NCBI RefSeq assembly: GCF_030269685.1 | Contig: NZ_BSTT01000003.1 | Span: forward strand, 434,001-498,000 | Reading direction: 5' to 3' | DNA: 64,000 nucleotides | Source: Actinomycetospora sp. NBRC 106378 | GTDB taxonomy: Bacteria > Actinomycetota > Actinomycetes > Mycobacteriales > Pseudonocardiaceae | Translations under genes and position numbers: made by a program | Shown: in pieces, positions 3,748 through 45,939 of the stretch | Layout: every line of letters starts with the position of its first letter | Numbering within the stretch: position 1 is the first letter of the stretch | The notes under the pieces: generated by a model | What the model saw: only the letters and a program-made list of their open reading frames with translations | Databases searched by the model: none | Told to the model about the DNA's origin: nothing

Positions 3748-4226
3748 CCCGGAGTCGGCTCCTCGTCGCGACGCTCGGGGTGGTCGCCCTGGTCCTGGCC
3801 GTCGTCGTCGGGCTGCTCGCCCGGGGTGTGGTCGCGGCCGCACGCACCGAGGACGCCACCCGGGAGGCGACCCGGGCCGCGGGCGAGCTCACCCCCGTGC
3901 TGCTGGGCTACGACTGGCGGACCCTCGACGACGACGTCGCCCGCATCGACTCCGCCACCACCGGCCCGTTCGCCGAGCAGAACCGGGCGATCGTGGCGAG
4001 CCTGGTGGTGCCCGCCGCGATCGGCACCCGGGCGAGTTCCTCGGCCGCCGTCGCGCGGGTCGCCGTGGTGTCCGCGGCGCCGGACCGCGTCGAGACCCTC
4101 GTCCTCTACGCCCAGACGACGGCCCGGGGCGGAGAACCGGGGGAGACGGTCGCCCGCAGTGCCCGCGTCGTGCTCGAACCCGGCCCCGACGAGCGCTGGC
4201 TCGTCGCCGGGTTCGACGCGTCCTGA
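3744..4226 (+). CDS. Mce-associated membrane protein, second of a coupled pair
   Basis: 160 residues from the GTG at 3744, overlapping the previous stop by four bases. A membrane helix spans about residues 4-32. A NTF2-like extracytoplasmic domain follows, with YDWRTLDDDVARIDSATTG, a phrase typical of Mce-associated proteins (helix before the beta sheet), and ends in VVLEPGPDERWLVAGFD. The two neighbours share this plan and probably sit side by side in the membrane as accessory factors for a lipid importer encoded elsewhere. The gene converges on the hydrolase with a 5-bp gap. Confidence 0.75.
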   Translation: MTRSRLLVATLGVVALVLAVVVGLLARGVVAAARTEDATREATRAAGELTPVLLGYDWRTLDDDVARIDSATTGPFAEQNRAIVASLVVPAAIGTRASSSAAVARVAVVSAAPDRVETLVLYAQTTARGGEPGETVARSARVVLEPGPDERWLVAGFDAS

Positions 4227-6812: not shown

Positions 6813-6870
6813 GCGAGGGTCACGTCGGGCAGGCGCGGCGGCCCCGAAGGATGCCTGACGTGCACCTCGC
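6813..6870. repeat. 58-bp palindromic repeat A, copy 1
   Basis: Starts GCGAGG and ends CCTCGC, with ACGT near both ends; about 20 of 29 positions pair across the centre. Together with copy 2 it forms a direct tandem, 94 bp start to start. The flanks GGCAC(C/G)CGCGGC on the left and GACCGG on the right are shared. Confidence 0.7.
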
Positions 6871-6906
6871 GGACGTCGACCGGACCGCCGGCGTGGCACG
6901 CGCGGC

Positions 6907-6964
6907 GCGAGACTCACACGGAGCAGGTCCGGGCGCCTCGGGATCGGCCTGACGTGCACCTCGC
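6907..6964. repeat. 58-bp palindromic repeat A, copy 2
   Basis: Same length as copy 1 and the same right end, GCCTGACGTGCACCTCGC. Lies 94 bp downstream of copy 1, between the 3' end of a GAF-ANTAR gene and the marR promoter. Confidence 0.7.
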
Positions 6965-7090: not shown

Positions 7091-7909
7091 TCAGAGCTCC
7101 GCGCGTCGCGAGGCGATGGTGGACGCGATGTCGCGGATCTTGACGTTCAGGTCCTGCGAGGCGCGGCGGAGGATGTCGAACGCCTCGTCGGCACCGACAC
7201 CCCGTCGCTCCATGAGGATGCCCTTGGCCTGGCCGATGACGTCGCGGGACTGCAGCGCCTCGGTGAGCTGCACGCTGCGCAGGCGCTCGGCCTCCACCCG
7301 CTGCGCCGCCTGCAGGGCCACCGCGGCGTGCGCGGCCAGGAGCAGCAGCACGTCCTCGTCGACGTCGTCGAGGTGCTCGGCGGACCGGAAGTAGTGGTTC
7401 AGCGCGCCCAGCCTCGGCGGCTCGCCATCGGGGAACATGCCGGTCGCGATCACGGCGGTCATCCCGAGCTGCGCGACGCGCGGCCCGAAGCGCGGGTAGC
7501 GCGGATCGTGGGCGAGGTCGCGGCTGGAGGTGCTGCCCGAGCTCGAGGAGGCGACGACCTCGACGCAGGGCCCCTCCCCGGTCTCGTACTGGATGTGGTC
7601 GGCGCGCGTCGCGAGCTCGTCGGTCTCGACCGGGGTGTGGTAGCTGCCGTCGGGCTCGCGCAGGGTCACCGACACCATCGCGGCCTCCGGGGTGAGCTCG
7701 TGCGCGCGCCGGACGATCTGCTCGAGCACGCCCACGACGCCCCGCTCGGCGGGCACCGCGAACAGGTCGCGCGCGAGGTCGAGGAACTGGTCGCCGAGCG
7801 GGCCCGGCTCCTTGACGAGCGTCTGTCCGGCGGGGCCCGGTCCCCCGGCGCCGTCCGACTCCTCGACGAACCGACGCCTGGCCGCCTGCCACTCCCGCTC
7901 CGTCGCCAT
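7091..7909 (-). CDS. GAF-ANTAR domain regulator
   Basis: 272 residues from the ATG at 7909. A GAF sensor domain covers about residues 45-185, with TGEGPCVEVVASSSSG as the usual ligand-pocket segment. An ANTAR RNA-binding domain covers about 205-265 (LQSRDVIGQAKGILMERRG, a three-helix bundle). ANTAR proteins act as antiterminators by holding a pair of hexanucleotide loops in nascent mRNA. There is no response-regulator receiver domain, so the GAF ligand is the likely signal. It is the last gene of a leftward three-ORF run with a second GAF-ANTAR gene upstream, and lies three bases after the small ORF. Confidence 0.85.
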   Translation of the reverse strand: MATEREWQAARRRFVEESDGAGGPGPAGQTLVKEPGPLGDQFLDLARDLFAVPAERGVVGVLEQIVRRAHELTPEAAMVSVTLREPDGSYHTPVETDELATRADHIQYETGEGPCVEVVASSSSGSTSSRDLAHDPRYPRFGPRVAQLGMTAVIATGMFPDGEPPRLGALNHYFRSAEHLDDVDEDVLLLLAAHAAVALQAAQRVEAERLRSVQLTEALQSRDVIGQAKGILMERRGVGADEAFDILRRASQDLNVKIRDIASTIASRRAEL

Positions 7910-15733: not shown

Positions 15734-15791
15734 GCGAGGCGTACGTCAGACAGGTTCCGGGCGCCCGGACCCTGTCTCACGTGACCCTCGC
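15734..15791. repeat. 58-bp palindromic repeat A, copy 3
   Basis: The most symmetric copy: 24 of 29 positions pair across the centre, from GCGAGG through CGGGC/GCCCG to CCTCGC. It lies between the 3' end of feoC and the 5' end of the hypothetical gene at 15249-15665. Confidence 0.75.
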
Positions 15792-40925: not shown

Positions 40926-42290
40926 ATGTCGACGACGACGCCGGACGCCGCGATCGGGAGACGGACCCTGCGGAAGGTCGCGCTGCGGGTGATGCCGCTG
41001 CTGATGGTCCTGTACTTCGTCAACTACCTGGACCGCGTCAACATCGGCTTCGCCGGCCCCAACGGCATGAACCGGGAGCTGGGGCTCACGGCGACGGCGT
41101 TCGGCCTCGCCTCGGGCATCTTCTTCCTCGGCTACCTGCTGCTCGAGGTGCCGTCGAACCTCGCGCTGCACCGCTTCGGCGCGCGGCGTTGGCTCGCCCG
41201 CATCCTGATCTCCTGGGGGATCCTCGCGACGGCGATGGCGTTCGTGCCGAACGGCACCTGGCTGATCGTCCTGCGCTTCCTGCTGGGCGTCGCCGAGGCC
41301 GGGTTCTTCCCCGGGATCATCCTGTACCTGACCTACTGGTTCCCGGCCGAGCAGCGGGCGCGGGCGGTCGCGATGTTCATGGCGGCGGTGCCGGTGTCCA
41401 CCGCGGTGGGCTCCCTCGTGTCCTCGCTGATCATCTCCGGCGGCGAGGGCCTGTTCGGGCTCACCGGCTGGCGCGTCATGTTCCTGGTCGAGGGCATCCC
41501 GGCGATCCTGCTGGCCGTGGTCACGTTCGTCGCCCTCACCGACCGGCCTACGGACGCCCGCTGGCTGGCCGACGACGAGCGGGCCTGGCTGACCGCGCGG
41601 CTCGAGGCCGAGGCCCGCGAGACCGCCGTCGGGGGCCACTGGCCGCTGCGCCGGGCCCTCACCAGTCCCCGCATCCTGGCGCTGGCCTTCGTCTACTTCG
41701 GGGTCACCTACGGGCTCTACGCCCTCGGGTTCTTCCTCCCGACGATCGTCGCCGGCTTCGAGCAGCAGTTCGGCACGAAGCTGTCGGTGGTCGAACGCGG
41801 TGCGGTCACGGCGGTGCCGTACGTGATCGCCGCCGTCGCGATGGTGCTGTGGGGCCGGCGGGCGGACACGGCCCGCACCGTCCGGGCGACCGCCTGGTAC
41901 GTCGCGGCGCCCGCGCTGCTCGGCGGCATCGCGATCCCGATCGCGCTCTACCTGCGCTCGCCGTGGACGGCGATGGCGGCGGTGACGGTGTGCGCCGTCG
42001 GGGTGTGCGCGGCGCTCGGCCCGTTCTGGGCGCTCCCGTCGCGGTTCCTCACCGGGGCGGCCGCCGCCGGTGGGATCGCCCTGGTCAACTCGCTGGGCAA
42101 CATCTCCGGGTTCGCCGCGCCGTACGTCACGGGGTGGCTCGCCGACCTGTCGGGCTCCCAGCGCGCGGGCCTGTGGGTGGTGGGCGTGTGCATGGTGGCC
42201 GCGGCCGGCGTGGCCGTGCTGGTCGGGACGCGGATCGCCCGGGAGCGCACGCCCGCCACCGTCGACCGAAGGGCACCTTCGCTCGACTAG
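40926..42290 (+). CDS. MFS transporter, anion:cation symporter (ACS) family
   Basis: 454 residues from the ATG at 40926 (457 from the GTG at 40917). MPLLMVLYFVNYLDRVNIGF is the ACS signature, with Asp and Arg in helix 1. LLEVPSNLALHRFGARRWLA is the loop 2-3 motif, FLLGVAEAGFFPGIILYLTY follows, and 12 helices are predicted. ACS members import phthalate, 4-hydroxyphenylacetate, glucarate or similar organic anions with H+ or Na+. The substrate is not determined. The gene converges on gcvP across repeat-filled DNA. Confidence 0.85.
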   Translation: MSTTTPDAAIGRRTLRKVALRVMPLLMVLYFVNYLDRVNIGFAGPNGMNRELGLTATAFGLASGIFFLGYLLLEVPSNLALHRFGARRWLARILISWGILATAMAFVPNGTWLIVLRFLLGVAEAGFFPGIILYLTYWFPAEQRARAVAMFMAAVPVSTAVGSLVSSLIISGGEGLFGLTGWRVMFLVEGIPAILLAVVTFVALTDRPTDARWLADDERAWLTARLEAEARETAVGGHWPLRRALTSPRILALAFVYFGVTYGLYALGFFLPTIVAGFEQQFGTKLSVVERGAVTAVPYVIAAVAMVLWGRRADTARTVRATAWYVAAPALLGGIAIPIALYLRSPWTAMAAVTVCAVGVCAALGPFWALPSRFLTGAAAAGGIALVNSLGNISGFAAPYVTGWLADLSGSQRAGLWVVGVCMVAAAGVAVLVGTRIARERTPATVDRRAPSLD

Positions 42291-42343
42291 GCGGGCCGTG
42301 GGCGCCCTTCGCTCATCGGCCCCTCGGAGTCCGCCCCCCGGCT

Positions 42344-42401
42344 GCGAGACGCACACCATGCAGGCTCGGGCGCCCCGCACCCTGCCTCACGTCACCCTCG
42401 C
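42344..42401. repeat. 58-bp palindromic repeat A, copy 4
   Basis: Starts GCGAGAC and ends CACGTCACCCTCGC. Lies 54 bp after the MFS stop. Copy 5 follows 83 bp on in the same orientation, with the shared flank CCGGCT. Confidence 0.75.
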
Positions 42402-42426: not shown

Positions 42427-42484
42427 GCGAGACGCACACCAGGCAGGCCCGGGCGCCCCGCACCCTGCCTCACGTCACCCTCAC
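42427..42484. repeat. 58-bp palindromic repeat A, copy 5
   Basis: Nearly identical to copy 4; both contain CCTGCCTCACGTCACCCTC. The last pair is CAC rather than CGC. Part of the convergent 346-bp MFS/gcvP spacer, which contains no gene. Confidence 0.75.
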
Positions 42485-42510: not shown

Positions 42511-42557
42511 ACGAGGGGAACCCTCGGCCCAGGAGAACGACCCGATCCTCCCCTCAC
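42511..42557. repeat. 47-bp hairpin repeat B, copy 2 (inverted)
   Basis: The same element as the copies at 26391 and 42575, read on the other strand: CGAGGGGAACCCTC at the left and CCTCCCCTCAC at the right. The middle has drifted. The outermost pair has one mismatch. Confidence 0.65.
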
Positions 42558-42574
42558 GCCCGGCTGGGCCGAAC

Positions 42575-42621
42575 GCGAGGGGAGGATGCGAGCGCTCTTG
42601 TGGCACGAGGGTTCCCCTCGC
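42575..42621. repeat. 47-bp hairpin repeat B, copy 3
   Basis: GCGAGGGGA and TCCCCTCGC form the stem. Compared with copy 1 the second base pair changes from T-A to C-G on both sides, a compensatory change that supports a folded RNA or DNA hairpin. GAGCGCTCTT is shared with copy 1. It lies 15 bp beyond the gcvP stop and may end that transcript. Confidence 0.7.
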
Positions 42622-42636
42622 GCGGGAGAAGGGGGG

Positions 42637-45616: not shown

Positions 45617-45866
45617 CCTCCCCCTCTGCCACTGCCCGCTTCGGGTCCAGCGCGGGCGCCTGAGAGCTTCACCGGACCTCAGCCCCGACGTCGGACGTCG
45701 GGCCGGCTTGCACCATCGGCGGGCGGGCCACCGTCATCGCCGACGGGGTCCACCGCTTTCCAGAGGTGGTCTGTCCCACGCGGTACGGGATGCCTGAGAG
45801 ATTCCGGGGAGGAGTTGCTCCTTCGGCGCCTGCGTCCAGAGGCTTCTGACTGCAGGACTCTCCCGC
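45617..45866 (-). ncRNA. Tandem glycine riboswitch upstream of gcvP
   Basis: On the minus strand the first aptamer (45753-45866) shows GGGAGAGTCC, GCCGAAGGAGCAACTCC, GGAATCTCTCAGGCA and GGGACAGACCACCTCTGG in the right order. The second aptamer (about 45617-45740) shows GATGGTGCAAGCCGG, GGTGAAGCTCTCAGGCGCC and GCAGTGGCAGAGGGGGA. The repeated GAA-CTCTCAGGC core is diagnostic. The gcvP start follows 67 bp after the second aptamer. Two-aptamer glycine sensors upstream of gcv genes normally activate expression when glycine is high. Confidence 0.92.
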
Positions 45867-45939
45867 GTGGGATGAGCGACCAACGGTGGTGACGTTACCG
45901 TCGCGCGGACGCCGTGTCAGCCCACCGGCGGCGTGAGGT

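What the first reader, a model, noticed from the sequence alone, without database searches (positions are those of the whole stretch)
6813..6964. A 58-bp palindromic intergenic repeat, five copies at three distant loci
Copies at 6813-6870, 6907-6964, 15734-15791, 42344-42401 and 42427-42484 have exactly the same length and conserved ends (GCGAGR ... CTCRC). They share internal ACGT and CCTG(C/T)CT blocks and a CGGGC-rich centre, and all are imperfect palindromes (24 of 29 pairs in copy 3). Two loci hold direct tandems (periods 94 and 83 bp). All lie outside genes, four of them beyond gene 3' ends. This looks like a dispersed hairpin family (REP/BIME-like) of this lineage, possibly mobilised by a transposase acting in trans or working as a terminator or attenuator.
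Basis: seen in the sequence. Interest (0 to 1): 0.7.

Follow-up and report, generated by a model that had tools for sequence, protein, structure and literature searches.

The report
Phased 58-bp palindromic DNA sites
An actinobacterium carries well over a hundred copies of a 58-base two-fold symmetric DNA site between its genes, often in rows spaced by about whole turns of the DNA helix, which looks like the docking site of a still unknown DNA-binding protein rather than an RNA hairpin.

Summary
The repeat is real and far larger than the five copies seen: 140 copies in 550 kb of the own genome, 120 in 299 kb of a relative, G002, both samples taken around copies. The RNA-hairpin/REP reading is not supported: arms do not covary (1 of 29 pairs excepted), wobble pairs are not favoured over A-C, and no Y1 (RAYT-type) transposase was found in the 16 genus genomes searched. 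The element is two inverted ~20-bp half-sites (core CGAG, AC, GCA) around a variable centre. In 41 orthologous copy pairs core columns change 12-fold less than variable ones, so copies are constrained in place. Tandem copies lie at about 73, 83, 94, 104, 113 and 123 bp: 92 of 99 spacings below 130 bp fit a whole-turn ladder, and four orthologous spacings differ by one or two turns. Copies favour convergent gene ends and are rare in divergent gaps. An IS110-family element inserts at one exact point of the site (6 of 6 close copies in G002). Best reading: binding site of an unidentified, cooperative architectural or boundary protein; the protein and its effect are not shown.

The parts
6813..6870 (.). 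58-bp dyad element, copy 1 of a tandem pair (period 94)
   Evidence: CM 68.1 bits
6907..6964 (.). 58-bp dyad element, copy 2 of the tandem pair; the orthologous gap in G002 (L274) has three copies at 96 and 92 bp
   Evidence: (61.6 bits)
15734..15791 (.). 58-bp dyad element, single copy; one orthologous copy in G002 (L274)
   Evidence: (69.5 bits)
42344..42401 (.). 58-bp dyad element, copy 1 of a tandem pair (period 83) in the MFS/gcvP convergent gap
   Evidence: 66.4 bits
42427..42484 (.). 58-bp dyad element, copy 2 of the tandem pair
   Evidence: 65.7 bits
40917..42290 (+). MFS transporter gene, left convergent neighbour
   Evidence: PF07690
42637..45549 (-). gcvP-like gene (glycine dehydrogenase; name inferred from size, conservation and the glycine riboswitch before its start, not from a family scan), right convergent neighbour
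7091..7909 (-). GAF-ANTAR regulator gene whose 3' end faces copies 1 and 2
   Evidence: PF03861, PF13185
6302..6718 (-). MarR-family gene; copy 1 lies 95 bp before its called start
   Evidence: PF12802

Best explanation
The element is a double-stranded DNA site: two inverted ~20-bp half-sites (core CGAG - AC - GCA, patches about 7 bp apart) held at a fixed distance around a variable 16-19 bp centre, bound by a dimer or tetramer of an unidentified sequence-specific protein. Tandem copies mostly sit on the same face of the helix, which fits cooperative contacts between neighbouring complexes. From the placement (convergent gene ends, rare before divergent promoters) I infer an architectural or boundary role, such as a roadblock to read-through between convergent genes or handling of the supercoils that build up there. 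Shown: the family, the half-site anatomy, constraint in place, absence of arm covariation, phasing, placement. Inferred: the protein, cooperativity, and the effect on transcription or topology.
For: 140 copies in G000 stretches and 120 in G002 stretches. No arm covariation within G000 at 28 of 29 pairs, so the dyad comes from two independently conserved half-sites; above the 5th-percentile score no half-site stands alone except one broken copy. Orthologous copies: 0.031 substitutions per site in core columns vs 0.385 in variable columns, rho -0.91, 41 pairs. In another genus (G021, six copies read) the ~20-bp arms are nearly constant while the centre often does not pair. Phasing, one spacing per locus: R 0.81 (n 37, G000) and 0.91 (n 31, G002), 0 of 2000 random sets as high in each; G000 without the 82-84 class, n 22, R 0.70, 0 of 5000; 92 of 99 spacings on the ladder against 52% expected, 40 of 47 without 82-84. 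Orthologous spacings 83/104, 83/93 twice, 93/104. Placement: 76 of 140 and 68 of 120 copies in convergent gaps, 9 and 4 in divergent gaps; non-focal gaps of 60 bp or more with a copy: 4 of 16 convergent, 7 of 103 codirectional, 1 of 52 divergent (Fisher p 0.009 vs divergent, 0.04 vs codirectional).
Against: No binding protein was identified. Sites turn over: none found in the gcvP gap of 15 relatives nor in the dnaA-dnaN region of G016, so no single site seems essential. Neighbouring copies resemble each other more than random ones (47.9 vs 40.7 of 58), so local duplication adds to the rows; spacers are somewhat more alike than shuffles (0.391 vs 0.348, and 0.430 vs 0.366). Off the ladder: 78, 81, 91, 96 (2), 99 (2) of 99, and 133 and 171 among five longer ones; two copies in G006 lie 88 bp apart, about 8.5 turns. 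One orthologous spacing differs by 2 bp (83/85) and one by 37 (133/96). Pair 9/50 does covary. Other genus members carry differing sequences, most with fewer copies found, which is odd for a housekeeping system.
Confidence: 0.6

Rival explanations
1. A miniature transposable element (two abutted transposon ends) spread by a transposase in trans; core bases are transposase contacts and the phased rows come from insertion near a resident copy.
For: Dispersed copies, conserved outermost bases, no lone half-sites apart from one broken copy, sequence classes differing between species, presence/absence differences between close species.
Against: Core columns stay constrained in orthologous copies, which dead copies would not show. 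Y1_Tnp absent in 16 of 16. Copies differ by about 30% (random pairs 40.7 of 58 identical). No source element flanked by two copies was recognised, but this was not searched systematically; no clean empty site with a target duplication was seen.
Confidence: 0.2
2. Bidirectional intrinsic terminators or mRNA 3'-end hairpins between convergent genes.
For: Single copies often fill a convergent gap with few bases to each stop codon (e.g. L065, L068, L093, L100). Other long palindromes occupy the gcvP gap in 7 of 15 relatives by a simple finder.
Against: No covariation except pair 9/50, no compensation in place and no G-U preference, centres often unpaired in G021, sequence-specific core, DNA-helix phasing of rows.
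Confidence: 0.13
3. REP/REPIN/BIME-like family acting through gyrase or other nucleoid proteins.
For: 3'-end and convergent placement like published REPs (PMC3733652, passages), IS110-family insertion into them as for REPs (PMC1525189, abstract; PMC11208160, passages), tandem rows.
Against: 58-59 bp, half-site not itself palindromic, no GTAG/CGTC tag at the ends, no RAYT found, no compensatory changes, which are common in REPINs (PMC3116915, passages).
Confidence: 0.07

Closest known systems
REP/REPIN elements (GTAG or CGTC tagged; GTAG ones linked to RAYT)
   Same: Many intergenic copies, mostly near 3' ends and between convergent genes, inverted pair around a variable spacer, tandem clusters, IS110-family insertion target
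   Different: No RAYT in the genus genomes searched, half-sites not palindromic, no arm covariation, phased spacing with spacers little more alike than shuffles
Enterobacterial BIMEs (gyrase and IHF binding; REPs bind Pol I; passages of PMC2817692)
   Same: Tandem intergenic DNA sites that may bind architectural proteins
   Different: BIMEs have REPs in alternating orientation and known partners; here rows are direct (50 of 52 adjacent pairs match better in direct orientation) and the partner is unknown
Dispersed protein-binding motifs such as matS, KOPS or parS (recalled, no call)
   Same: Many short sequence-specific double-stranded DNA sites
   Different: 58 bp bipartite, concentrated at convergent gene ends, rows in helical register; no polarity relative to codirectional neighbours (27 vs 21); polarity to replication was not tested by a call

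Membership tests
REP/REPIN | RAYT / Y1 transposase in the genome | tested here: not met
   PF01797: 0 of 16 genus genomes including own; 1 of all 25 genomes searched; positive in 5 of 14 control genomes
REP/REPIN | GTAG or CGTC tetranucleotide tag at one end | tested here: not met
   Element ends are GCGAG...CTCGC; flanks show only a C / G preference
REP/REPIN | Hairpin with compensatory changes | tested here: not met
   (pair 9/50 excepted); REPIN yardstick from passages of PMC3116915
REP/REPIN | High copy number, intergenic, at gene 3' ends | tested here: met
   4 of 140 and 6 of 120 copies fell inside called genes
Intrinsic terminator | RNA stem kept by pairing in the transcribed strand | tested here: not met
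   G-U 94 vs A-C 87 in 48 codirectional copies; no compensation in place
Intrinsic terminator | Transcripts end there | not testable with these tools
   needs Term-seq
MITE | Target-site duplication at clean empty sites | tested here: inconclusive
   Of 31 orthologous gaps, 30 hold copies in both genomes and one a collapsed remnant, but the G000 loci were chosen for holding copies
MITE | Neutral decay of copies after insertion | tested here: not met
   12-fold lower change in core columns of 41 orthologous pairs
IS110-family insertion target | Insertion at one fixed point with a CT core | tested here: met
   Left junction GTGNNNCTC/AGTGTC in 6 of 6 close G002 copies; right junction .../CTCG in the 5 of 6 where the IS end was found; PF01548 and PF02371
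Dyad protein-binding site | Two conserved inverted half-sites at fixed distance with a free centre | tested here: met
Dyad protein-binding site | A protein binds it | not testable with these tools
   needs a binding assay

The most novel reading that the evidence does not exclude
The genus uses a chromosome-wide set of well over a hundred helically phased, bipartite docking sites for an unknown cooperative DNA-binding protein that insulates convergent genes, with the protein's specificity and all its sites shifting together between species, and an IS110-family (RNA-guided type) element exploiting the site as a safe harbour.
Probability: 0.3. Interest if true: 0.85.

Novelty: new variant of a known kind. 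Interest (0 to 1): 0.62.

Why it matters
Dispersed bacterial palindromes are usually filed as REP hairpins moved by RAYT transposases. Here a family without a detected RAYT behaves instead as phased double-stranded DNA sites under selection in place. It gives a direct handle (a defined bait sequence, more than a hundred sites, natural spacing variants) to find an architectural or boundary protein in a high-GC actinobacterium, and adds a natural target of an IS110-family element.

Tried and rejected
RAYT/Y1 transposase as mobiliser: none found. RNA hairpin: rejected on covariation, wobble and in-situ compensation tests. Rfam at gathering threshold: no match at the elements, only a glycine riboswitch in the window. 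Origin-specific role: copies lie just after dnaA in G000 and G002 (three each), G006 (two) and, more weakly, G014 (one, E 5e-5), but none was found there in G016 or in 13 more distant genus genomes with models R1 and R2, so it is not a fixed origin part. My simple palindrome finder missed known copies (one of three in G000 and in G002 after dnaA, both in the G000 gcvP gap), so absences were rechecked with the models. The palindrome as part of the IS110 element: rejected, since IS copies agree while the adjoining palindromes differ. Guide segment in the IS end: only two 6-mer matches, no better than chance by my estimate. The gcvP scan of named genomes gave mostly distant relatives, was told to leave out near records, and was not used for the element. 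Apparent orphan half-sites were mostly 59-bp copies. Pfam of 20 proteins, mostly neighbours of long rows, showed no common family.

Full report
Observation. Only copy 3 has 24 of 29 pairs; the others have 16 to 20. Searching the own genome (6.31 Mb, 52 contigs) with a model from 14 copies gave 150 scored rows, the limit, many being both strands of one site; merged with a BLAST search this is 115 places in 86 clusters, some of them partial matches. In 550 kb (window plus 80 stretches taken around copies) a symmetric matrix finds 140 copies and none in reversed sequence; three further copies there are 59 bp long (L059, L094, L112). The total for the genome was not obtained.

Distribution. With the same model all 18 genus genomes held matches at E 0.001 (2 rows up to the limit of 136), one of the 23 other genomes (G021, another genus) five rows, and the remaining 22 none. 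In a draw of 200 family genomes, 9 had matches at E 1e-5, in two of 46 genera (eight genus members and G021); that search scored few candidates per genome with stricter filters and is blind to diverged classes. Several species carry their own class of the same size: a 59-bp class GCGAGGGGCACGTTCSGCA, modelled from eight species; its model matched 12 of 16 genomes, all 12 of the genus, where it partly cross-matches the 58-bp family (89 rows in G000), and none of the four other-genus genomes. Others are a GATCA-ended class in G004, G010 and G012, one in G006, and CGAGATGAACCTCAGCCACG in G021 (about nine places by BLAST, six read). The consensus of each class keeps AC at positions 10-11 and CA at 18-19, though single copies can differ.

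Anatomy. Within G000 the most conserved columns are C2 G3 A4 G5, A10 C11, G17 C18 A19 and their mirror images; the centre is GC-rich but degenerate. In oriented copies the pairing of the arms is what independent arms would give at 28 of 29 pairs (106 non-redundant copies; pair 9/50 is the exception, z 3.4). Before orientation several variable pairs were below expectation, which the polarity of the element can explain. In G021 the arms are almost constant while the six centres pair to different degrees (21 to 28 of 29 pairs over the whole element). So the symmetry is that of two half-sites, not of a selected stem.

Selection in place. Clusters of the 61 G002 loci (60 with copies) gave 31 placements in fetched G000 loci. 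In 27 of the 31 a copy aligned with a copy; three more hold copies in both (a 59-bp copy in L094; L240/L134; L280/L090, where the single G000 copy joins the outer G002 copies); one G000 site is a collapsed remnant. These G000 loci were chosen for holding copies, so this is not a rate of loss. In 41 aligned copy pairs, core columns changed at 0.031 and variable columns at 0.385 per site. Both copies had to pass a lenient matrix score of 22 (most copies score 45 to 70), which could remove badly decayed copies; gene conversion could also keep copies alike but would not spare core columns only. Of 31 two-sided changes at paired positions 24 still pair, against 22.6 expected. In the window two of three clusters have orthologous copies in G002; the gcvP gap there has no match to the model and holds another palindrome.

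Phasing. Adjacent distances between 60 and 130 bp in both genomes (n 99): 73 x2, 78, 81, 82 x7, 83 x40, 84 x5, 85, 91-96 x28, 99 x2, 102-105 x5, 113, 123 x4, 124 x2. Best-fit period 10.1-10.2 bp, R 0.83 in each genome with all distances; one spacing per locus R 0.81 and 0.91, none of 2000 random sets as high in each; G000 without the 82-84 class (n 22) R 0.70, none of 5000. The ladder (83.3 + k x 10.4) was set after seeing the data; the period was scanned in the nulls too. Seven of 99 are off it; of five longer distances 176, 187 and 208 fit and 133 and 171 do not. Two G006 copies lie 88 bp apart, off the ladder. Spacers of exactly 25 bp at 14 and 19 loci are only moderately more alike than shuffles. 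Fifty of 52 adjacent pairs match better in direct orientation, and neighbours are more alike than random copies, so rows grow in part by local duplication, while the length rule must come from selection or from the duplication or insertion mechanism. Orthologous spacings differ by about one turn in three cases (83/93 in L282/L128 and L237/L118, 93/104 in L293/L077), by two in one (83/104, L235/L104, inspected as an exact 21-base gap), and by 2 or 37 bp in others (83/85, 133/96). Seven-copy rows in L095 (G000) and L279 (G002) both show an 83 + 123 pattern, with only short weak similarity between them.

Placement. G000 copies: 76 convergent, 48 codirectional, 9 divergent, 4 inside called genes, 3 at contig edges; G002: 68, 41, 4, 6 and 1 of 120. 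Gene calls are from my own codon-usage caller. In gaps of 60 bp or more away from the middle of a stretch (the window's included), 4 of 16 convergent, 7 of 103 codirectional and 1 of 52 divergent hold a copy, a small sample. The median distance to a 3' end is 46 bp. After dnaA, before dnaN, G000 and G002 have three copies each, G006 two, G014 one weak match; none was found in G016 or 13 others.

Insertion element. An IS110-family element (PF01548, PF02371), 1313 bp in one copy, is inserted at the right-arm end of a copy in 6 of 6 close copies in G002 (E 1e-60 or better); the right junction with CTCG was seen in 5 of these. In G000 its left end adjoins copies in L080, L076 and L132, the last two at contig ends; the protein search found one G000 copy and none in G014 and G016. 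The junctions fit a CT core as in IS621 (passages of PMC11208160). This is a user of the site; nothing shows it to be its mobiliser.

Function. The data support a double-stranded DNA site recognised by a protein and constrained where it lies. Boundary, roadblock or supercoiling roles at convergent ends are inference from placement. Literature: the listings showed no description of such a family in actinobacteria; the library holds open-licence papers only. I read the outline with abstract of PMC1525189 and search passages of PMC2817692, PMC3733652, PMC12306157, PMC3116915 and PMC11208160.

Noticed in passing
L241:2056-3368 (G002), also L317, L320-L323, L080, L076, L132: IS110-family element that inserts at one exact point of the 58-bp site, 6 of 6 close copies in G002; a natural system to test target guidance by its RNA.
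   Followed up: partly
L096:3002 to contig end: A copy is cut near its centre and followed by sequence that reads like the end of another transposase gene (IS30-like by eye, not searched).
   Followed up: no
window about 42268-42325 and 42513-42630; L248, L249, L251-L253, L257, L262: The MFS/gcvP-side gap carries other long palindromes (e.g. GAGCGAAGGGCCCC..., ATCCTCCCCTCGCG...) that differ between species, found in 7 of 15 relatives by a simple finder (window coordinates by eye); convergent gaps may collect interchangeable palindromes.
   Followed up: partly
window 45771-45875 (-): Glycine riboswitch before the gcvP-like gene.
   Followed up: no
L118:2812-3058; L237; L328:1305-1450; L327:1402-1458: Copies in the dnaA-dnaN region of G000, G002 (three each), G006 (two) and a weak one in G014; none found in G016.
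   Followed up: partly
L095:2504-3141; L279:1878-2552: Two seven-copy rows at different loci share an alternating 83/123 bp pattern, a 206-bp higher-order unit.
   Followed up: no
L061:about 4107-4140: Collapsed remnant with the centre deleted where G002 has a four-copy row.
   Followed up: partly
G021 (L305, L308, L310, L312, L314, L316): Another genus has its own 59-bp dyad family with near-constant 20-bp arms.
   Followed up: partly
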